NCBI GenBank assembly: GCA_019321725.1
Contig: CM033110.1
Location: 14,439,278 to 14,503,277 of the forward strand
Reading direction: 5' to 3'
Length of the DNA: 64,000 bases
DNA from: Paulownia fortunei
Lineage: Eukaryota; Streptophyta; Magnoliopsida; Lamiales; Paulowniaceae
The position numbers and the translations under genes are program-made. Below are positions 6,467-49,012 of this stretch, in pieces. How positions within the stretch are numbered: the first letter of the stretch is position 1; each line of letters opens with the position of its first letter. The notes beneath the pieces were generated by a model. It had not been told where the DNA came from. It worked only from the letters and a program-made list of their open reading frames with translations, and did not search any database.

Positions 6467-8650
6467 ATGGTAGCTTCAAGTAAGGAACAAGAACAAGTTC
6501 AAGAACAAAGTCAGAGTATTAAATCAGGTGATGCAAAGTTCTCTCTCAAAAGGACAAATGAAAAGAATGTCACACAGGATTTATGTTCAAAAGTCAATAA
6601 ACCATCTAAGCTACCGCCCAAGAAAAAACGAAGAACTAAAGCAGTTGAAATAGTTAAGAAATAAGATTCAAAGATTACCTTTGAAATATGGGGCCACTTT
6701 ACTAGATTGGAAGATAGAAACCCACCTAGAGCTACATGCAACTATTGTTGCAAGAGCTATGCTGCTCATCCAAAACTTAATAGAACTACTAGTATGTGGA
6801 CATATTTGGAGTCTTTGTGCAAGATGTATCCACTTAAATTGAATAAGTCACAAAAGATTGTGTATGATTATAAAGGTGTGCGTGACAACCAAAATAATAA
6901 TTCTACCATTAAAAGAAAGACTTTAAATTTTGAAGAAGTAAGGAAAAGTCTTGCTAAAATGGTAATCATCGATGGGTTGGCTTTTAAGATTGTGGAGGGG
7001 AAAGGGTTTAAAGCTTATTTTCAAGCTTTAGAGCCAAGGTTTGAAGTACCATCTAGGAATACTGTTGCTAGGGATTGCATGAAAATTTTCTTGAACAAAA
7101 AAAGAAATTAAAAAGGGTTTTGAAAAAACAAAGAGTATGCTTGACCACCGATACTTGGACTTCATTGCAAAATTTAAATTGTATATGTCTTACTGCACGT
7201 TGGATAGACAGTGATTGGAAATTACAAAAAGGAATCGTAAACTTTTACATTATTAAGAATCATAAAACAGAAACAATAGGGAAATAAATAGAAGAGTGTT
7301 TGATTCACTGAGGTATTGATAAAGTTCTCAAAATTACGGTGGATAATGCTAGCTCTAATGATAAAGCAATTAATTATCTGAAATGAAAATGTAAGTAGAA
7401 AGATATCATCTTGAATAATGATTACATGTATATAAGGTATTCAACCCATATAGTAAATTTGATTGTCAAATAGGGGCTAGAAGAGCAAAATAAGGTCATA
7501 GAGTGGGTTAGGAATGCTGTAAAGTATGTAAGGTCTTCGCCAAGTAGGCTAAAGGCATTCAAAAAGTGTGTAGAGAAAGAAAAAAATTAATTTTAAGAGC
7601 CTTGTTTGTTTAGATGTAGAAACACGGTTGAATTCAACTTATATGATGCTTGAGGCTACAAAGAAGTTTGATGAAGCTTTTGAGAGGTTGGTAGATGAAG
7701 GTAAAAAATACACAGGCTACTTTGATTGTTATGAATTGAATCAAGATGAGAAATGTGAGGGGAAAAGAGAAAAGTGAGATGGAATAAGATAATTGGACCT
7801 CCGATGGACATAGATTAGATTAATGCCAGGAATATTGTCAAGTTTTTAACAATCTTCTATCATGTGACTTTATAATTCTCTGGTTTATTATATATTACTT
7901 CAAATACCTTTTTTCATGAACTTGCAACTGTGCACATTAGTTTGTCTATTATGATCAGTAAGGGAGATTATGATATAGCATTAATGGCTACTCGGATGAA
8001 AGAGAAGTTCAACAAGTAATGGGGAAACATTAATAACATCTACTGGTTGTTGTTTGTTGCTATTATTATGGACCCAAGATACAAGCTAAAGTATGTTAAT
8101 TTTGGCTTTGCAATAATATATGAAGGTGATGCTTCTTTTGTGAAAAGAATGTCTAACAAAATAGAAGAATTGTTGGGTTTGTTGTATAAGTATTATACAA
8201 ATTTTAATTTTCAGCAAACTGGTAAAGATGAACATGCAATGCAAGGCTATAATTACATACAGGTAGATGGAGAACATGACCCAAGTGAATTGTTAGAATC
8301 TCAATTTGCTAGGCATTTGGAAGAAGAGCAATTTGTTGAGAGTAAATCTGAAGTTGCAAGATATTTGAAAATCAAGGATTTTGATGTATTAAATTGGTGA
8401 AAGGTGAACACTCCAAAATATCCTATTCTTTCCAAAGTTGCAAGATATGTTTTAGCTATTCCAGTGTCTACTATTGCTTTAGAATCGGCTTTTAGCCAAG
8501 TGGTCGTGTGATTGATCTGTTTAGAAGCTCTTTATCTCCGAAAATGGTAGGGGCCCTCATATGCTCTCAAAATTGGTTACATCTTACATCTTCTCCAATT
8601 GATATTCACATAATAATGGAGGATGTTGAACAATTTGAGTTAGAAAAAGG
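6467..8650 (+). pseudogene. hAT transposase with BED zinc finger, inactivated
   Basis: Conceptual reading gives the whole hAT order. A basic N-terminal stretch (PPKKKRRTK) may be a nuclear localisation signal. A BED finger follows (FEIWGHFTR, CNYC, about 6670-6800). Next comes the RNase-H-like core with TTDTWTS (7142-7165), VDNASSNDK (7338), THIVNLIVK (7446), and VRSSPSRLKAF. MDPRYKLKYV (8070) follows, then the C-terminal dimerisation block KYPILSKVARYVLAIPVS, GRVIDLFRSSLSP and GALICSQNWL (8415-8580). The family cuts and pastes hAT elements by binding terminal and subterminal repeats. It is broken: an in-frame TAA at 6662, a frameshift near 7100 in an A-run, several stops at 7285-8000, a TGA replacing the expected Trp at 8398, and a frameshift near 8500. 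The first ATG in frame is 6467. RICESLEEPER-like proteins are the nearest relatives I recognise. Confidence 0.85.
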
Positions 8651-17693: not shown

Positions 17694-18047
17694 TTTTTGG
17701 GGAGAATATGGGGTGGGGGCGGCTAATTTGCAATGTGTGGAAGGGAAGAGTTTAGATAATTTTACCGGCTAAGTCAAGGGTAAATTGCATAAATCTCCCT
17801 ATGTTTTCATAAAAATGCAAAAAAACTCCCATGCATTCAGAAAATATCCTAAAACCCCGGGTACATACAAAACTCTGCACACTCGCCCTTAACCTCATCC
17901 AAAACTAACAACATTAATATTTTTACAGAACTGCCCTTTATACTCTTGAAAATTTTAATTGTTGGATCTAAGGCAGCATTATGATGAGTCAATTAATAAT
18001 TAATAGTAAATTTATATTATTAAACAAAATACCGTGGAAGGTGGTGG

Positions 18048-18254
18048 CTTAAAAAAATAAGTGAAAGCGCAAGTGGAGGTTGCGACTTTAATTTGAACGC
18101 GCAACTCCCGTTTGTGCTTTCAAAATTTATTTATTATTTATTATTTTTTACTACTTAAAGGCGCAACAGTGAGTTGCGTCTTTTGAAAGCGCAATCTTAG
18201 ATTGCGCTTTCAGTTTAAAAGCGCAACTCATTATTGCGCCTTCAAATTTTAATA
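18048..18254. repeat. GC-rich hairpin array at the left end of the MULE
   Basis: A run of GCGCAA/TTGCGC words in alternating orientation stands out from AT-rich surroundings. The best hairpin, 18185-18211, has 12-bp perfect arms (GAAAGCGCAATC) around TTA. Others include AAAGGCGCAACA...GTTGCGTCTTT and AAGCGCAAC...TTGCGCCTT. It lies 60-270 bp from the element terminus. Likely transposase-binding or structural subterminal repeats; this role is inferred. Confidence 0.8.
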
Positions 18255-18617
18255 TATTTTTTAAATATATATATATATATTTATATTTATTTTATATATA
18301 ATTAATATATAAATTTGTGGGAGTGGAGAAATAAGGAGTGAGATGTAATTAAGGATGATTGATATTTTATACATATATTTTAGATAAATATATATACATG
18401 TATTTAGTAATATTTTTTATTATAATAATAAATAACATAAAGTTATGTTGTTTATTTTTATTTTTTTACTTTAGTATATCAGTATATGTATGTAAATATT
18501 TTAATAAAAATAATAACAATACTATTTTTGTTTCATAAATCAGACAAATAATTTTTTTGAATAATAATTACAGTATTGAATTTAAATTTTTTGAAAAATA
18601 CAAGAATAAAAAAAATA

Positions 18618-21056
18618 CTAAAAATGACCACCAGTGCCACACGTACGTCGTTGGCGTTGGTCTGATGAAGTTATGGATGTCGACTCTCCACGATCATGAT
18701 AGTCGTTGTCTAGATGTGGAAATGCAATAGGCGAGACAGTAAAATCTCCACATCCAAAATCGTATCCTATATGCTGCTGAACAAACGGTGTTTGCGCCAT
18801 GTCTAAATCTGAAGTGAGTAGTGTAGAAAATGACATCGTAGATGGTGGCATACCCCAATACGGAGTGAATGAGTCATCTGGTTGTGCCTGTTGAGGCACA
18901 TAATAGTCGGCGGTGCTATCCAAACCGTGTGATACACGATGTGTCGAGGTGGATGGACCTGCCTCATCTGCTACACTAGACATAAGTGGATGAGGAATGT
19001 CGTAAGATGTAGAAACATGGCTACTAAATGCACCCCGTGTCTCGGTAGAGGGACCCGCATCATCTACTACTCTAGTACGCCTCCTCGTCCTCCTGGCTGT
19101 GTCTTGTGGTGGTGGCACTGGTATATTTACATCATCTTGTTGTCTACAACGTAGGCGTCTAAGATCATCAGTGGCGTGTATAGCGTCACTCCTCAACTGC
19201 ATAAGTGAAGCTATATCTTGCTCGTTCGCGCCATCAGCACTGAGTCTAATCCTCTCGACCGCCATACTCTAAAATACATGTAAAAAAGGAATAATATTAA
19301 AGAATATCATCATGATGCATACACATTATAAAATTTTTTATTAATGAATATCTTACCATAGCTTCCAAATCTGATATGTGTGAAGGCTGGTACCCCTCCT
19401 CCATAGGCAAATGGGATGGTGATATCAGACGGCGTGTAATGCCATCGTACCAATTCATATAGCGAGGCTCAGTACTATCGGACCAGTAATGGGAGGGTTA
19501 ATGATAATAAACTGATGTCTATTTACCACTGCGACACATACTCCCGTGATATCGAGCCCAATCCTCTCCACTGCGTTCCCTGCGGTCTACATCATGTAAA
19601 GTATGTTCATACGCTGGTATATCTGGTGGAATGTACTGGCGCATGCCAAACTGGCGCATGACCCGCTCTGGGTGATGGAACTCGACGATAGCGTAGTTGA
19701 TCAATGGACAACGAGATCTCCACAGTGGCGTATTACACCTTGGACCCAACACCATAATATCCGGTGAACTCATATCATATTATCTCATCTAAACTACAAT
19801 TATAAAATACATAAATTTGAATTATTTGTACATATATGAAAAGAAAATCAAATCAATTTAAATAAGTGTCTTAAATTCTACTCACCTCTCTATCAGTCAT
19901 CCTATCTAGTATATCCCTAATAATCCTGACTGAATAACTCGCTGTATGCGTGAAGCTGTAATACTGCATCCACCTATATGTATATAAAAACAATCATGAA
20001 ATAACAATCATGAAATAATCACCAAATAATAGTAGAAGTATAAGCTCATTATCATTAGCGGTAATAAATGGGCTTATACCTTGCACCATATGGAGGAAGT
20101 GGAAGCTCATGATCATTAGCGCCGATGAGTAGGCCCATATTTACTCGCGAACATAATCGTCTTGGCACCAACATGGTAATGCGAGACCATGCCATATCTG
20201 CAAAAATATATATTAATCTATAGTACAAGGCAAACATATTGATATAATAACATAAGAAAGTAACAATACTTATATAAAGTTTACCTGTAGAAGCACCATC
20301 GCACCACCAATAACATTCTTGTCTTTATCCGATGCATTGCACAACTCACGATACATGAAAGACAGTACTGCACTGCCCCAACTAAAATAAACAACATCCT
20401 TAATCTGCTCCATACTCTGTAGAATATAGCAACGACACTCCATTGCCTGATGAATCAGGACACATAATGCTACCGAGTAGAATCAATGCACAGCCGCGTG
20501 TATATCGCTCCAACTCATCGTGGGGAGTGTCATCTGTCACTGGGTTAGCCTCAAGATAACCCTCAAGGCACTCAACAATATACGCCCACCCCTAAACTGC
20601 TGTGAAGTGGGTCGAAATCTTAAGTAATGGTGGCAATAATCCTGCCACTGCTCGGTAGATCTCCTCGGATCAACTCCAATAACAGGCTGACCATCTACTG
20701 GTAAACCCAAATAACTGCAACATCTTGTAGTGTGACAGTCACCTCACCAATGCGAAAATGAAATGTATGAGTCTCAGGTCGCCATCTCTCGACTAGAGCA
20801 GTAATCAAATGAAAGTCCATATCAAAGTGTCCATCGGTACGATAGAATCCATAGAAATATATCATACAGCATATGAACTACACGAGGATGCAATGCACCC
20901 TCCCCACCATGAAGACTCCAAAATGGTGCGCCTGCGTGCCTAACTGTAAGTGTCCTATCAACCGCACCAGCAAATACACTCTCTGAATGGTGAGTAGCCT
21001 GTCGGGATAAAACTATCGTATCCCGTGGACCATATAAAGAAACAATATCCATCCTG
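18618..21056 (-). pseudogene. plant mobile domain (PMD) protein of the MULE, multi-exon, broken
   Basis: Read on the - strand, pieces in order match the aminotransferase-like plant mobile domain. They are SLYGPRDTIVLSRQ and HHSESVF (from 21056), [20 protein letters not shown] with [17 protein letters not shown] (about 20785-20690), TPHDELERYTRGCALILLG (about 20525), and YFSWGSAVLSFMYRELCNAS (about 20395-20330). Next are DMAWSRITMLVPRRL (20200) and PLINYAIVEFHHPERVMRQF with GMRQYIP (19710-19630). The C-terminal tail is GP-S/T-rich and ends at 18618. Introns with GT/AG-like edges separate the pieces. Frame changes near 20850, 20690, 20580 and 20420 break it. PMD proteins are known both as host silencing/genome-integrity factors (MAIN, MAIL1) and as passengers of Mutator and Ty3/gypsy elements. 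What this one did for the element is unknown. Confidence 0.75.
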
Positions 21057-21304
21057 TTTACAAATGAATAACACCATGTGTCAAGGATAATTTTTTTAAT
21101 AGCATCACATGAATGTTTACATATATTATGAAATTTAACCATATGGTTAACAATAATTAAACACAAATTTTAACATATAACATGAAATTGTACATACATC
21201 ATTAACAACAGTTAAATATAACATCATTACAAATTTATTTCATACAAATAAGGAGTATTACTCCCGCAGAAAAGCAAATACTAATCTAACTGTAATGACA
21301 TCAT

Positions 21305-23950
21305 CTATGCTGGGAAGATGAAGTTGTTCCACGTTCTATTGCATTGACCCTTTGCCTTGCTCATGCTTGTTGTCTAGCACGTGTCTGAGGCCAATCCATC
21401 TCGTTAGGAATTCGAGTAGTAGTATTCCGTCCACGACGATTCTAAATCCGCAATGCTGGATTATGCCACAACTCGAAATGGGGCGCATCCCAATAAACTT
21501 CATCTGGAAAAGGCTCAAACTTTCCTTTGTAAGTATCTACATAAGAAGCAGTGCTATAGTACGATTTCATGAGTGTTGCTGGATTAACTCCAAAATGCCG
21601 ACAAGTATGCATTGCATGCGAGCAAGGTATTCCAAATTGACTCCAATTACCGCATGAACACTCCATTGACCTCAGTTTCACGACATGTGTAAAACTCATG
21701 GATGATCCTGATCGACGTGTTATCACAGACGCGGATTGATCTGTGTAATCAAACACATGTACCATATGCTCTATAGATAGATTCTGCCAACTCTCATACC
21801 TTTATAATATATTATCAGGCCATGGTTGGTTATTCTCCACCATTCGACGACCCTTGGATAGTCGATCGAGAAAATATTTAATAGCACGATGGAATGTAAT
21901 TTGTACAATAGCAGTGACTGGGAGCCGTCGTGCACCTTTCAACATTCCATTAATGCATTCTGACATATTTGTTGTCAGAATACCACATCGCCATCCTCCA
22001 TCATAAGCTAGAGTCCACTGACATTTATCTATATTCTCCAAGTATGTATGTGCATTATCGTTAAGAGCCTTTATTTTTTCCATGACCTTATCAAATTGTC
22101 TGATTGTCAATTATGAACTAGCTGTATAACACAAATCCCTTAATGCAATACTCTTGAACCGCTTGTTGAAATTAGATGACACATGCCTTAAGCAAAAACG
22201 ATGCACCCACACGAGTGGCGTAAAATCAGGTATGTATTGAACAGCTTCAAGTAGGCCACTATGTCGGTCAGATATCAAACAGACACCCTTAATCCCGCGG
22301 ACAACATACATAGACAACATATGCAAAAACCATCTCCAAGATGTAAATGTTTCTTCATCAACAACTGCAAAAGCCAGAGGCAAAACCTGTTGGTTTGCAT
22401 CTATCCCCACAGCAATCAACAACTTGTGTTTGTACTTTGTGTAAAGATGTGTTCCATCAACACTTATTACTTTACGACAATTTTGGAACCATCGATACAT
22501 GGCTTGAATGCCCAGAATACATATTTCAATATTTTCTTTTCTGCGAACTCGGTGTCGATGTGATGCCACTCCACAATTGTGCCTGGATTCCATTTTTGCA
22601 GAGCTCACAAATACTTAGGCAATTTTCTAACTGAGCTCTCCCAAGTGCCATAAACATTTTCCCTTGCGCGTTTCAAACCGTGCCAGGCCTTATGATATGA
22701 AATTTCATACTGATACTTCTCTTTCACATTTTGTTGGACATACTTAATCTCATAGGCCGGGTCACACTGAACTATACCAGTAAGCAACCTTGCGATCATG
22801 TTTTTATATAGGTTGCAATGATCCACAGATACTGAATTCATAAGGCAGGTATGAGGGCCTGCCCATTTGGTGATTTTCCATAAATTGAGCTTTGCTTTCA
22901 ATGATGCTCGAAGCCCCCAATTACACCACGTGGTCGATGTACTATGGCTGTATTCCACTTTCCATAATTTTGGTGTACTCTCAACCACTCGATACTCACG
23001 TCTGACAACTCATACAGAGTAATCTTTAACTGAAGCTTGGAGATTTTTTTTATCTTTGAAAACCATACCCTTTTCAAGCTCTCCAATACTAGAGTCATAA
23101 AACTTCCTCTATTTGGAATATCAATAGAATCAACAACTATTTCTGGGTAACATGTGGTGAAGAATGGTATAGTACGATTAGAGTCATATTCATTTGTTGT
23201 TGAGGACAATGAGGTATAAACCGGCACTTGATGTTGGGATGAGTTGCCCTCATCATGTTGCTCATACATCTCTTCCAAATTATCAATTTCGACCCCATCA
23301 CCACCATCATCATCATCATCATCACCATCATCACCATCATCATCTTCATCAGCAATTTCATCGGGTTCGGAATTAATATGTTCTTCAGCACCTAAACTGT
23401 CGGCAAGTGGGTCGGATAATTCATCAATGTATGCATTATACGGTTCTGTATTTGTACCTTGAAAATGCTCTTGACCAGCGCTTGAAGCACCTGCATTAAA
23501 CTCATTGATGCCAACACTTGCCATACCTTGCGTCACTGTAGTCATTTCAAACACACTATCATCTCTTAAAAATGATGCATACTGATAATACTCATTGGTT
23601 GTTGGTATCTCAGGCACAATATTGTGAACAATTTTTTCTGCCTCAACATAAAATTCTACAAATTGATTTTCTCTTCCCGGATCTAAGAAAAATTCCAATC
23701 CTTCGTCATCCGTTATTGATATTAGTTGTGACACATTACCGCAACAGTACTTACCAAATAATTTCAATAAGAATTGTTTATCATCAACGCCCGTAATCTG
23801 ATACACTTTCAATAGTAATTCAGAAAATCTTGTCCTACGAGACATTCTCCTCGCTCCAATTGCAGGGCGATCATATGTCACTGAATTAGCATCTTGTATA
23901 ATTTGACCACCAAAGTATACCAGAACATCAATGTTGTTTCTATTTGCCAT
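21305..23950 (-). pseudogene. MURA-type Mutator transposase, inactivated
   Basis: Starting at the ATG ending at 23950, the first 350 residues are open. They hold a PB1-like N-terminal region (VLVYFGGQIIQDANSVTYDR), an Asp-rich stretch encoded by a GAT microsatellite (23290-23345), and the start of the Mutator DNA-binding domain. A frameshift near 22960 leads to STPKLWKVEYSH, GCNW-like CNWGLRASLKAK and GPHTCLMNS. Then comes the DDE core: ISVDGTHLY (first Asp, about 22458), LLIAVGIDANQQ, and CLISDRHSGLL (second Asp, about 22270), with HRFCLRHVSSNFN after it. AYDGGWRCGILTTNMSECIN and a SWIM finger of CxCx9CxH form (about 21660-21610) follow, then TTRIPNEMDW. Breaks: TGA at 22605 where Trp is usual, a frameshift near 22480, and stops at 22111, about 21800 and 21442. 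It would have cut and joined the element ends. Confidence 0.88.
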
Positions 23951-24739
23951 AACTACATCAAAAAAGTATTAATATTTTAATTTTAAATAATAATTTCAAA
24001 AACATAATATTTAATTAAAATTATCATAGTTGTAAAAAAGATTCCCTAAATAATTCAATAATTTTTCACTCACATTTTCAAGTCAAATAACAAATAACAA
24101 ATAACAAATATAATATACAAAAAAAAATTTGCAAACATTAGCTTCTCCACATATAAAATATCCTATTAAAAATATAATTGCATATATCATTATAAAAAAT
24201 AATATTAATCACATTTCAATACAATCAAATCTATTTTTTCAATATAATAATACATTTACTTCACAATTATTACAATATAATATATATATATATATATATT
24301 ATAATTGAAATATGATACCTGTAAGTCACAACTCCAATATGATCTGCGTCGTATTTTAATATATCGCGTACTAACCTGAACAAAAACATATAAATGTTAA
24401 TTAGTAATTTTTTTTAATTAAAAAATAATAACAATATTACTTACCGAAATAAGCAAAAATAGACGGGAATGGGAGAATTCAAATGAAAGAAAAAATTACA
24501 AAAATAAAATTTGATCAAAAACTCGAGTGAAAGGCCGAAGAGAGAGAGAGAGAATGGAGGAAGTTGGTGGGTGAGGAAAGGAGGAAGTGAGGAGGGGGAA
24601 TGTGGAGGTTTAATAATGGTGGAATGGGGATGAGGTGCGCGCGGGAGGGAGGGGAAGGGAAGAGGAAAAGAGAAGAAAGGAGAGGGGAGGGAGGAAAGGA
24701 CGAAGGAGGAAGAAAGGGGGAAGGCCGGGAAATTGCAGC

Positions 24740-24862
24740 AGAAGAGGTTGCGCCTTCTGAAAATCTTTGCTGAAGGCGCAACAGCTTGCGCCTTCTGACA
24801 AGAAGCGCAATCTTAGATTGCGCTTCCTGTGAAAGCGCGTTTTCAAAACGCGCTTTCACTTA
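24740..24862. repeat. GC-rich hairpin array at the right end of the MULE
   Basis: This is the counterpart of 18048-18254. A perfect 11-bp-arm hairpin (GAAGCGCAATC around TTA, 24802-24826) repeats the core of the left-end hairpin. Next to it, 24831-24857 is a 13-bp-arm hairpin (GAAAGCGCGTTTT around C). GGCGCAAC...GTTGCGCC-type words fill the rest. It lies about 75-195 bp from the right terminus. Confidence 0.8.
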
Positions 24863-26763
24863 TTTTTTACAACCCTGTCAACTACGGTATTTATTTAATT
24901 ATTTTTTTAATTTACTATTTTAAATTAAATTAGTCCATTATGATAGCCATAGATCTTGCTAAGAACTCTATCAACCATTAGATCTCATTTGAAATCAAAA
25001 ATCAATGGTCCATATTTTATTCTCTTATTTTTTTTTTCTTATTTCTTTTTGTTTTTGCCATTTTCAAGTATTATTTATCTTGTATGCATATATATATATA
25101 CACACACACACACACATACGTACATATACATACACATTGCAGATTTGGGGCTATGGGGAGAAGAAGAAGAAGCAAGAGGATGGTGGTGAGAGGAGGAGGA
25201 GAAAAAGAAGATTAGGGTTTGGAGAGAAGAAGAAGAAGGAGATGGTGCGGGAGGCGAAGAAAATGTCTGGAGATTTGGGGCTAGCTTGGGGGCTGAGCGG
25301 CGTTGGTGGTATTGTTAGAGGCTGCAACATGATTTACTTAGTTGGGGCATGAAATAATAAAAACAAGATTCAAAAAACTCCTTAAAACCCCTTAAACTAT
25401 GGGATACTAAATTGTCCATCCCTAGTAGCCTATTGTTTTTCATTTTTTCTTTGTTTCTTTTTTCAGTTCTTTAGTGCAAAAAGATGGACCAAATTTTGGT
25501 TGTTCAAAGGGGTATGCCAATACTGTATCTGCTCCAATTTTTTCATGTGTCTCTTTGAAACAAAATAAAGACCCAATAATTTTCTAGTACTCTTTACACA
25601 CAAAAGGCGTCAAAATATAGCAAAACAACAAAATAAGTAGCATTGAAGTTGGCGACAGTGCCTCGAAGAAGAAGAAAATGAAGAATAAGAAGTTGGTCAT
25701 GGGTAAGCGAAGGGGAAGGGGAAATGGATTTGGTAATAGGCTGCAGGTGGGTGAAGAAGGATGGGGAATGGATCTAGCCACCGATTGGAGGCGGCGGTGG
25801 TGTTGGGCGGTGCGAGGGTGGTGTTGGGTGCTTGTAATATTTTTGTATTCTTTGTATTTTCTCTAAAAATTCCATATTTTCTCATAATTTATCTATTTTT
25901 TTGAATAATTTTTGTAATTTTTTGTATTTTTATTTTAACTTTTATTGTAATTTTTTTATTTTTTTTATTTGCATGTATGAAATTTCATAGCTTTTCTTGG
26001 AAATTTTGTCATTCGTATGGATTTTTTAAATTTTTTTTGTAATTTTTATCGAATTTCTAGCTTTCTTAAATTTCTATAAAATTTGATGATTTCTTTCTGG
26101 AATTTTCTAATTTTATGTAATTTTTTGAATTTTTTCTTATTTTATTTAGTATTTATGATTCTTTTATAATTGCATAAATGCTTATGAAGTTTTGTAGCTT
26201 TTTTGAAATATTGGTGTATAAGGAACAAAAAAAATCCTAAAAAGAGAAAATAAAATTTGATAATAACTGGAATAGATATAATTACTTTTAATTTTTAGAG
26301 ATGGATAAATTTTTTTCTAGTAAGATTAATAAAATAATTACAAAATATAAAAGATATAATGTATACTTTACAGAATTTTTAAAATGGTACAAATTAAAGT
26401 TAAAAGTATTATTAACAAATATTAGGATAAACTGTATAAACTAAAATAAGTATGAAGTTGAAAAAATTACTATTTAAATGAACTCCATAGGACTTTTTGT
26501 AATTCAAGTGCACTGCTACATGCATATATCAAAAGATGGGCATATTGGTCAATTCACATGAAAAATTCAGTCACAATCCACCAGAACATGTCCGACTTTG
26601 CACCAACCACGCGTACTCTATAATTCCCGTTAAGTTTGACAAAATCGAGTTTTTTTCAGAGTTTTGTATTAATGCGAGGTTTTTAAGTTATTTTTTTAAT
26701 GTCTTTTTTTTTTTTTTTTTTGCATTCTTGCGAAAATACAAGAGGATATTTTGTAATTTACCC

Positions 26764-47527: not shown

Positions 47528-48573
47528 TTTAATTATAATATATATAGATTAAATTAAATGTAGCTATTTTTCTTTTTATTGGGTTTAGAAGAAGAAGCTA
47601 ATTTTTGATAATTTTGCTAATATCTGAAAGCATGTTTGGTTCACTAATTTGTCGGTTGTAATAAAAAGAGTTTGCGAGCAAAAAAGATATAAAGAAAGAG
47701 CAACGAAGAATGATTAGACCTCCTTGAAATTAGGAACAAGATTTCTATGACATATAGTCAATACATTTCCTTCTGGTAAGTACTCATAAAACCTCTATAA
47801 ATAATTCAAAACAAAAAATAATTATAACATCGACAATTACTATCAATAGCTCATGAAAACACTGTTTGAAGCCAAGTAAATACAAAGAATTTGGCTTGGA
47901 TCATAGTACGTGGAGAAATAACATAATGATATCAATTCTACAGACACACACACACATATATATATATATATTTGATTATAACATGTCACAATGACTTAAA
48001 AAGTAGGTGTCAAAATTTAATTAATCAACATACTTACAACCAATTAATGCTAGACAAAGTCTACTTTCCTTCAATACCTAACCTTTGCATGAGTGACGGG
48101 TATTTGTTCGATCGACCTACCACTTGTTCTTATGTCAAAAATTATAATTGTTAGCAATAATACAACTCAAATTTTTAACTATAGAGCATTCCAAACATCA
48201 TGTTTCGACTGTAATCCCACCATGAGATCAATTATTTTTTGCTCCTCAATCCCATTAGGGAAGAAATTGTTACCACACATATCAAGATTAATTATCCTTT
48301 TAACTAATCAATTAAGAACAATTTAGAACAATGTGTTTGTTGTGGTGTGCATTGGGGGGTGGGGGGATGGTTAGGGAGAGAAATGAGAATAGTACTGGTC
48401 CTATTGTCCTGATAAGTGGTAACAATGTAGGGCACATTAGTAATGGGTGATGAGCTCTTATGCCCTCTTACATGACTTCTACAAAAACATCCATGCAACA
48501 ATTAGTTCTTTGCCCCCACACTCCACATGTTTTGGTTCTTTCAAATTTCTCATTTCCCCCTACCACTTTTATG
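47528..48573. other. upstream region of the SAUR gene
   Basis: No other gene was seen. A (TA)n tract lies at 47955-47972. A CACATG box at 48524-48529, about 45 bp before the TATA box, matches the PIF-binding E-box often found in SAUR promoters; its use here is inferred. No clear TGTCTC auxin element was noticed. Confidence 0.4.
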
Positions 48574-48581
48574 TATAAATA
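48574..48581 (+). promoter_or_regulatory. TATA box of the SAUR gene
   Basis: TATAAATA, 132 bp before the start codon, would place the transcription start near 48605 and leave a leader of about 105 nt. That leader contains a poly-C/poly-A run and a GAGAGAGA tract just before the ATG. Confidence 0.7.
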
Positions 48582-48712
48582 CCTCTACTCCCCTTCAATT
48601 CTTCCCCACCACCTTTCCAATATCCAAATTTCTTCTCATTTCCTTCTCTACTAAAAAGGCCCCCCCCCAAAAAAAAAAAAAAAAAAGAGAGAGAGAAAAA
48701 AGAAGAAAAGCA

Positions 48713-49012
48713 ATGGCTATATGGAAAACAAACAAAAACAACAGCACTACTCCAAATGCAGCAGCCCTCAAGCAAATCCTCAAGAAGTGTTCGAGCTTTG
48801 GCAAGAAACACGACGTTCCTAAAGGGCATTTTGCAGTGTATGTGGGTGAAAACAGGAGCAGATACGTCGTTCCTATAACGTTTTTGGCACATCCCGAGTT
48901 TCAGAATTTGTTGCAAAGAGCTGAAGAAGAGTTTGGATTTCACCATGATACAGGGATAACACTTCCTTGTGATGAACAAGATTTCTGCTCTTTGGTTTCC
49001 ATGATTAGATGA
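48713..49012 (+). CDS. SAUR family small auxin-up RNA protein
   Basis: A 99-aa intronless gene, as is usual for SAURs. The N-terminus is basic ([15 protein letters not shown]). The SAUR core follows: [20 protein letters not shown] (about residues 39-58), then [20 protein letters not shown] and the ending [11 protein letters not shown]. It is closest to the SAUR50-type group in my recollection. These proteins inhibit PP2C.D phosphatases, keep the plasma-membrane proton pump phosphorylated and so promote cell expansion. The ATG at 48713 is chosen because the family pattern MA(I/V)WK begins there, although the frame is open further upstream. There is a TATA box at 48574 and a DST-like motif downstream. 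No defects; it looks functional. Confidence 0.95.

What the first reader, a model, noticed from the sequence alone, without database searches (positions are those of the whole stretch)
17986..24935. Mutator element carrying a plant-mobile-domain gene beside its transposase
Both a MURA-type transposase and a multi-exon PMD gene lie on the same strand between matching termini and an exact 9-bp target-site duplication. Host PMD proteins (MAIN, MAIL1) act in transposon silencing and genome integrity, and PMD passengers are known in Mutator and gypsy elements. The passenger could counter host silencing or assist transposition. The presence of both genes is seen; the role is inference.
Basis: partly seen in the sequence, partly recalled or inferred. 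Interest (0 to 1): 0.75.

Follow-up and report, generated by a model that had tools for sequence, protein, structure and literature searches.

The report
Decayed two-gene Mutator with PMD cargo
This is one worn-out copy of a plant jumping-gene family that carries, beside its transposase, a second gene related to plant gene-silencing proteins; such cargo is already known, but here it looks like a lasting partner of the transposase and not a one-off accident.

Summary
Window 17986-24935 is a full-length Mutator-like element (MULE) with an exact 9-bp target-site duplication. On the minus strand it carries a MURA-type transposase gene (21301-23950) and, 248 bp after its stop, a separate five-exon plant-mobile-domain (PMD) gene (18618-21052). 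Both frames are broken here.

The family is real: 5 of 5 full-length relatives fetched from the same genome (inferred: Paulownia fortunei) are colinear end to end with both genes. 26 of 30 loci with the same left end carry PMD exons 4 and 5 (23 of 27 without the window's own copy and same-flank duplicates). One relative keeps an unbroken 704-codon PMD gene; no unbroken transposase was seen in six copies.

Within the young family neither gene shows constraint (dN/dS about 1). Against a second PMD-MULE family in the same genome both genes diverge alike (54-62% identity, synonymous sites near saturation). Protein trees place PMD and transposase in similar groups across Lamiales, with these PMDs apart from host-like PMDs. 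Accidental recent capture is therefore unlikely.

PMD genes in MULEs, and the counter-silencing idea, are in print (Ikeda 2017; apparently Dupeyron 2019). Function is untested. New member of a known kind.

The parts
17977..17985 (.). left copy of target-site duplication CATTATGAT
   Evidence: exact 9-mer shared by both flanks
24936..24944 (.). right copy of target-site duplication CATTATGAT
17986..24935 (-). whole Mutator-like element, 6950 bp, coding strand minus
   Evidence: both ends shared with five full-length copies L039-L043; left end found at 40 scored places
18062..18251 (.). left subterminal array of GCGCAA/TTGCGC inverted repeats
   Evidence: the repeat finder; 7 motifs in the first 260 bp; 24.3 per kb in 28 loci (window's copy among them) against 0.12 per kb in their outer flanks
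24742..24859 (.). right subterminal array of GCGCAA/TTGCGC inverted repeats
   Evidence: 5 motifs in the last 260 bp
21301..23950 (-). MURA-type transposase gene; a single frame is inferred from overlapping open pieces of several copies (no copy of six is unbroken); broken here (6 in-frame stops, 3 frameshifting indels)
   Evidence: Pfam MULE 1.3e-16, SWIM 9.1e-5; frame pieces; lesions; start ATG and stop TGA the same in six of six copies
20285..21052 (-). PMD gene exon 1 (first PMD part), frameshifted here
   Evidence: projection of the L039 model; Pfam PMD 7.4e-18 in 20695-20877
20080..20197 (-). PMD gene exon 2, one 1-bp deletion here
   Evidence: AG and GT kept
19886..19973 (-). PMD gene exon 3, two in-frame stops here
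   Evidence: codons 328 and 330
19357..19793 (-). PMD gene exon 4 (last PMD part), four 1-bp deletions here
18618..19268 (-). PMD gene exon 5, C-terminal tail without a Pfam match, 48-nt deletion here

Best explanation
The feature is a non-functional, fairly young copy of an autonomous-type MULE family whose unit is two genes in tandem on one strand: a MURA-like transposase and a separate five-exon PMD gene. The PMD gene is an old, co-inherited component of this Lamiales MULE lineage, not a recent capture of a host gene. Most likely working (inferred, about 0.35 on its own): the element's PMD protein acts in trans on the element's own expression, by mimicking or competing with host MAIN/MAIL-type PMD complexes that keep transposons silent, so that the transposase can be made. 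Shown: anatomy, family, co-occurrence in this genome, similar grouping of the two proteins in trees. Inferred: co-inheritance outside this genome and any function of the PMD protein.
For: Exact 9-bp duplication and shared ends. Both genes in 5 of 5 full copies, and PMD exons 4+5 in 26 of 30 loci with the same left end, of which the five full copies are a part. A PMD domain match on the expected strand inside 16 of 40 left ends, 15 of them at 2.3-3.0 kb and one at 4.1 kb; one search scored 117 of 1082 candidates, so this is a lower bound. Unbroken 704-codon, five-exon PMD gene in L039. Three pairs of Paulownia gene models with consecutive tags, transposase next to PMD: Pfo_029774/029775, 020067/020066, 005260/005261 (adjacency read from the tag numbers). 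Second family L008 has transposase and PMD in the same order and strand, and the two genes diverge from the window family to the same degree: PMD 56%, transposase 54 and 62% identity, pN/pS 0.32-0.42, synonymous sites near saturation. PMD tree: 102 rows holding both families split from 21 host-like rows, support 98. Transposase trees give similar groups: Paulownia+Phlomoides, Primulina+Henckelia, two separate Sesamum groups. Host PMD proteins act in silencing, and counter-silencing by element PMDs has been proposed (PMC5418596, PMC8616336; passages seen).
Against: Within the family PMD dN/dS is 1.06 [0.72-1.70] and transposase 0.84 [0.60-1.31]; shifted-frame controls were lower (0.49-0.63), so there is no sign of recent constraint on either gene. 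On inner branches of a 22-row tree the counts are too few to decide (exon 4: 4 synonymous, 6 non-synonymous, ratio 0.41; exons 4+5: 34 changes, ratio 0.73). At the L008 distance dS is saturated, so the ratio is rough, and no shifted-frame control was run there. No copy of six has both genes unbroken. The tree groups partly follow host kinship (Primulina and Henckelia are both Gesneriaceae), so similar grouping is expected to some degree even without linkage; only the two Sesamum groups and the two Paulownia families go beyond that. In the 121-row transposase tree L008 (24% of columns filled) does not sit with Erythranthe and the large Sesamum group, unlike in the 41-row tree (98) and the PMD tree (94). 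Trees are FastTree or quick IQ-TREE without bootstrap, with long-branch warnings. One Sesamum gene model has PMD and transposase in the reverse order. No expression, binding or silencing data.
Confidence: 0.7

Rival explanations
1. The PMD gene is a passive, recently captured host fragment (transduplication, as in Pack-MULEs) with no role for the element.
For: In-family dN/dS about 1; PMD frame broken in five of six copies; MULEs often capture genes (PMC5418596 discussion passage).
Against: A second family shares the arrangement at 54-62% protein identity in both genes; the element PMDs form a group apart from host-like PMDs; transposases fall into similar groups; an intact spliced 704-codon frame exists.
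Confidence: 0.14
2. The PMD protein is a transposition helper (as mudrB of maize is said to be for integration) and not a silencing antagonist, perhaps by binding the subterminal GCGCAA arrays.
For: PMD occupies the second-gene position; GCGCAA arrays at both ends; mudrB role as quoted in PMC6446971 (passage).
Against: No DNA-binding evidence for any PMD was seen in the passages read; the arrays could as well be transposase sites.
Confidence: 0.25
3. The PMD gene is an independent host gene or another element that the MULE merely sits beside or that inserted into it.
For: The genome holds many PMD places outside this family (99 of 115 PMD places typed had no such left end within 4.5 kb).
Against: The PMD lies between the same ends in 5 of 5 full copies at different sites with different duplications.
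Confidence: 0.02
4. The frame breaks are mainly assembly errors in long-read contigs, and this copy is intact in the living plant.
For: Most frameshifting lesions are 1-bp deletions; of 39 single-base indels counted in both genes of six copies 20 lie in runs of three or more equal bases; they crowd in the PMD part of two copies.
Against: In-frame stops by substitution in both genes; 48-nt deletion in exon 5.
Confidence: 0.08

Closest known systems
MULEs with PMD-C domains in grasses and Amborella (Ikeda et al. 2017, PMC5418596; passages seen)
   Same: MULE transposase and a PMD related to MAIN/MAIL in one element; anti-silencing use proposed there
   Different: There described as fusion proteins with the transposase, from two recent captures; here separate frames 248 bp apart in a eudicot lineage with its own PMD group
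MULE groups 42 and 45-50 of Dupeyron et al. 2019 (PMC6446971; section 6 read in full; terms searched)
   Same: Table 1 lists PMD as an extra motif in these seven plant MULE groups, TSD 9 or 9-10 bp where given, SWIM finger
   Different: Sometimes, often or mostly antisense in most of those groups; here sense. The abbreviation PMD is not spelled out in the text held, so its reading as plant mobile domain is mine
VANDAL21/Hiun with VANC anti-silencing protein (PMC5735166; passages seen)
   Same: Multi-gene MULE whose extra protein acts on the element; short motifs repeated in non-coding parts, ends included. Dupeyron's table gives 'PMD and/or DUF in half the members' for VANDAL
   Different: The term PMD does not occur in the VANC paper, so VANC was not compared with PMD here; the motif here is GCGCAA, function unknown

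Membership tests
Mutator/MULE superfamily | target-site duplication of about 8-11 bp, typically 9 (definition recalled; ranges in PMC6446971 Table 1) | tested here: met
   window 9 bp exact; four other copies exact 9 or 10 bp, one inexact
Mutator/MULE superfamily | MULE transposase domain with SWIM finger | tested here: met
   PF10551 1.3e-16, PF04434 9.1e-5; also PF00872, and weak PF03108 (0.0042, below cut-off) in L042
Mutator/MULE superfamily | terminal inverted repeats | tested here: met
   imperfect repeats at both ends, kept in the copies
Mutator/MULE superfamily | mobility | tested here: met
   same ends at many sites with different duplications; past mobility only
PMD proteins (PF10536) | PMD domain above curated cut-off | tested here: met
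   65.3 bits against 34.9 in the window piece; P0067, a Paulownia model of the same family, 210.6 bits
Group 50 MUDR of Dupeyron 2019 | PMD antisense to the transposase for most members | tested here: not met
   both genes on the minus strand; 'for most' leaves room
Group 50 MUDR of Dupeyron 2019 | placement in that transposase clade | not tested
   no reference transposases of that study were fetched
PMD-C MULEs of Ikeda 2017 | PMD fused to the transposase | tested here: not met
   transposase stop TGA 21301-21303 (same in six of six copies), PMD ATG 21050-21052; fusion by splicing not excluded
PMD-C MULEs of Ikeda 2017 | PMD of class C rather than A or B | not tested
   no class A/B references were at hand

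The most novel reading that the evidence does not exclude
The PMD gene is a dedicated, long-lived anti-silencing (or targeting) gene of a Lamiales MULE lineage, co-evolving with the transposase and acting on the element through the GCGCAA arrays at both ends, a PMD-based counterpart of the VANC system; host and element PMDs would then be two sides of one arms race.
Probability: 0.12. Interest if true: 0.75.

Novelty: new member of a known kind. Interest (0 to 1): 0.4.

Why it matters
PMD proteins guard plants against transposons and are themselves found in transposons. A family with many copies, an unbroken PMD frame in one of them and a similar transposase history gives a testable case for whether element PMDs counter host silencing. 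It also cautions that eudicot genomes hold element-borne PMD genes beside the true host genes; related Sesamum proteins annotated as 'phosphatase 7 long form' are probably of this sort, though their surroundings were not seen.

Tried and rejected
Host-gene neighbour or nested insertion: rejected because the PMD gene lies inside the same ends in all five full copies. Recent constraint on the PMD frame: looked for, not found. DOWN motif (CATGCAGTTT, linked to host PMD targets in PMC9899485): 7 matches with up to one mismatch in the window, 6.1 expected, none inside the element; dropped. Solved-structure relatives by sequence of P0067, a PMD model of this family: none at E up to 1. Structure prediction: not accepted. 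Whole-genome counts of PMD exon 1, of the transposase and of the right end, and the full L008 element, could not be obtained (service busy, below). Rows dropped before counts: one search left out eight of 30 loci (L011, L014, L020, L023, L024, L026, L028, L032: cut short, partial or duplicate) and L013 (same copy as L039, which was added), and codons filled in under 60% of rows; one search left out L014 and L032 of 30; one search used 40 of the 120 listed transposases, all 120. The best-explanation confidence was 0.75 in my draft; I lowered it to 0.70, and raised the capture rival from 0.12 to 0.14, on seeing that the tree groups partly follow host kinship.

Full report
What is there. Window 17986-24935 is bounded by an exact 9-bp duplication (CATTATGAT, 17977-17985 and 24936-24944) and imperfect inverted ends. 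Minus-strand frames match the MULE transposase domain (1.3e-16), the SWIM finger (9.1e-5) and the plant mobile domain (7.4e-18). Between the ends and the genes lie 632 bp on the left and 985 bp on the right.

Source. The most identical predicted proteins are from Paulownia fortunei (95% over 49% and 97% over 44% of a 167-residue piece; Sesamum proteins rank higher by E-value at up to 66%), and contig lengths of several Paulownia proteins equal contig lengths in G000 (for example 23747858, 17507082, 132903). G000 has 509 Mb; the first P. fortunei assembly is given as 511.6 Mb (PMC10647314, abstract and passages seen). The species is thus inferred, not told. P. fortunei, Phlomoides, Sesamum, Primulina, Henckelia and Erythranthe are Lamiales.

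Family. A search with the first 275 bp scored 40 of 157 candidates, 82-100% alike, so the count is a lower bound. I held 30 of the 40 as loci: 26 of 30 carry both PMD exons 4 and 5, and 29 of 30 at least 505 of the 651 bp of exon 5; L028 has neither, and in L011, L023 and L024 the match ends before exon 4. Two pairs (L014/L019, L031/L032) share the 12 flank bases printed and are probably the same insertions assembled twice; without these duplicates and the window's own copy the count is 23 of 27. Five of these insertions, chosen by me among those closest to the window (92-94% at the left end), were fetched whole (L039-L043) and are colinear over all 6950 bp. Duplications: window and L040 9 bp exact; L039, L041 and L042 10 bp exact by eye; L043 inexact. 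Pairwise identity in the multiple alignment is 97.15-98.09%, gaps not counted, so the copies are young.

The PMD gene. In L039 five exons joined by GT-AG introns of 87-109 bp give 704 codons without a stop; the model is mine and has no transcript support. It fits the other copies with one to many breaks. In the window copy the frame has two in-frame stops in exon 3, nine frameshifting indels against L039 and a 48-nt deletion in exon 5 (ten frameshifting indels by column majority). Thus the window copy cannot make the protein as assembled. The transposase of the window has six in-frame stops and three frameshifting indels; none of the six copies has an unbroken transposase (in-frame stops 6, 3, 1, 1, 0, 4; frameshifting indels 3, 2, 0, 5, 3, 3). 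L039, with the unbroken PMD, has a broken transposase. The PMD start (21052) follows the transposase stop (21301) with 248 bp between, so the genes are separate by frame; a spliced fusion is not excluded. Some annotated models in Paulownia fuse pieces of both (P0010, P0070), while three pairs are neighbours by tag number.

Constraint. In six copies dN/dS was 1.06 [0.72-1.70] for PMD and 0.84 [0.60-1.31] for the transposase; shifted-frame controls gave 0.49-0.63. That is decay, and no argument for function. In a 22-row tree of exons 4 and 5, terminal branches gave 1.03 and inner branches 0.73 on only 34 changes (exon 4 alone 0.41 on 10, exon 5 0.95 on 24). At long range, L008 on another contig is a second PMD-MULE with the same order and strand. 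Compared with the window family, PMD exon 1 has 56% identity, pN/pS 0.42 [0.35-0.52], JC dN 0.38 and dS 2.03; the transposase parts have 54 and 62% identity and pN/pS 0.41 and 0.32. So both genes kept their proteins over a distance at which silent sites are close to saturated, and to the same extent. No shifted-frame control was run at this distance.

Trees. Among 124 PMD rows, 102 rows that hold both MULE families form one side (support 98); 21 rows form the host-like side (20 proteins of 550-1055 residues, about one per named species with two in Olea, and the L005 piece, probably the same locus as Paulownia's Pfo_023069); L001, a further PMD gene, served as outgroup. 'Host-like' is inferred from length, names and copy pattern. 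The first side shows bursts per genus (window family 10 rows, Phlomoides 5, most of the rest Sesamum). The transposases group alike: Paulownia with Phlomoides (64 in the 41-row tree, 89 with all 120 rows; PMD 97), Primulina with Henckelia (100 and 99; PMD 100), a separate smaller Sesamum group (100 and 100; PMD 100), and a larger Sesamum group with Erythranthe (98 and 97; PMD 94). That the smaller Sesamum groups of the two trees belong together is assumed. L008 joins the last group in the PMD tree and in the 41-row transposase tree but not in the 121-row tree, where only 24% of its columns are filled; there another Paulownia protein (P0231) sits with that group. Part of this likeness follows host kinship, so it supports co-inheritance without proving it. 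I could not look at the genomic neighbourhood in the other species; one Sesamum radiatum model (P0305) holds PMD and transposase parts in the reverse order.

Ends. GCGCAA/TTGCGC motifs crowd in the outer 260 bp of both ends: 12 of 14 in the window copy, about 0.1 expected in shuffles, and 24.3 per kb in the left end of 28 loci against 0.12 per kb outside and 0.55 per kb further inside. They form hairpin-like repeats. They may be transposase sites, or targets of the PMD protein; nothing here decides. The parallel with VANC motifs (PMC5735166, passages) is a likeness only.

Known or new. Ikeda et al. 2017 (passages) report PMD in MULEs of grasses and Amborella and suggest an anti-silencing use; the review PMC8616336 (passages) repeats it; Dupeyron et al. 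2019 list PMD in seven numbered MULE groups, often antisense (abbreviation not spelled out). Nicolau et al. 2020 (PMC7156037, passages) say that eudicots contain mainly genic PMD-C. I saw no paper on a PMD-MULE in Paulownia or on transposase-PMD co-inheritance in Lamiales in the listings of searches (open-licence papers only; listings capped, one search showed 10 of 814). So the kind is known; the same-strand separate gene and the similar trees add detail.

Verdict. Confirmed as a two-gene MULE family, known kind. Role of the PMD gene: counter-silencing in trans is my first choice at about 0.35, a transposition helper next at about 0.25.

Noticed in passing
18062-18251 and 24742-24859: Subterminal arrays of GCGCAA/TTGCGC hairpin-like repeats, kept in the other copies.
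   Followed up: partly
L008 (C20:11703762-11707337): A second, distant PMD-MULE family with transposase and PMD in the same order and strand.
   Followed up: partly
genome G000: Of 115 PMD places typed, 99 have no left end of this family within 4.5 kb; many carry stops, so the genome probably holds other PMD-bearing repeats.
   Followed up: no
L014/L019 and L031/L032: Pairs at different places share the element end and the 12 flank bases printed; probably the same insertion assembled twice.
   Followed up: no
19357-21052 and L043: Small frameshifting indels crowd in the PMD part of two copies (10 and 14) but not in their transposase part (3 and 3); uneven polishing or decay.
   Followed up: no
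6665-8400: Remnants of a hAT element: BED finger (1.2e-4) and hAT RNase-H fold (7.6e-10) on the plus strand.
   Followed up: no
48506-49012: Likely SAUR-type auxin-responsive gene, plus strand (Pfam Auxin_inducible 3.5e-29).
   Followed up: no
P0305 (Sesamum radiatum): One gene model with a PMD part before the transposase part, the reverse of the order here.
   Followed up: no
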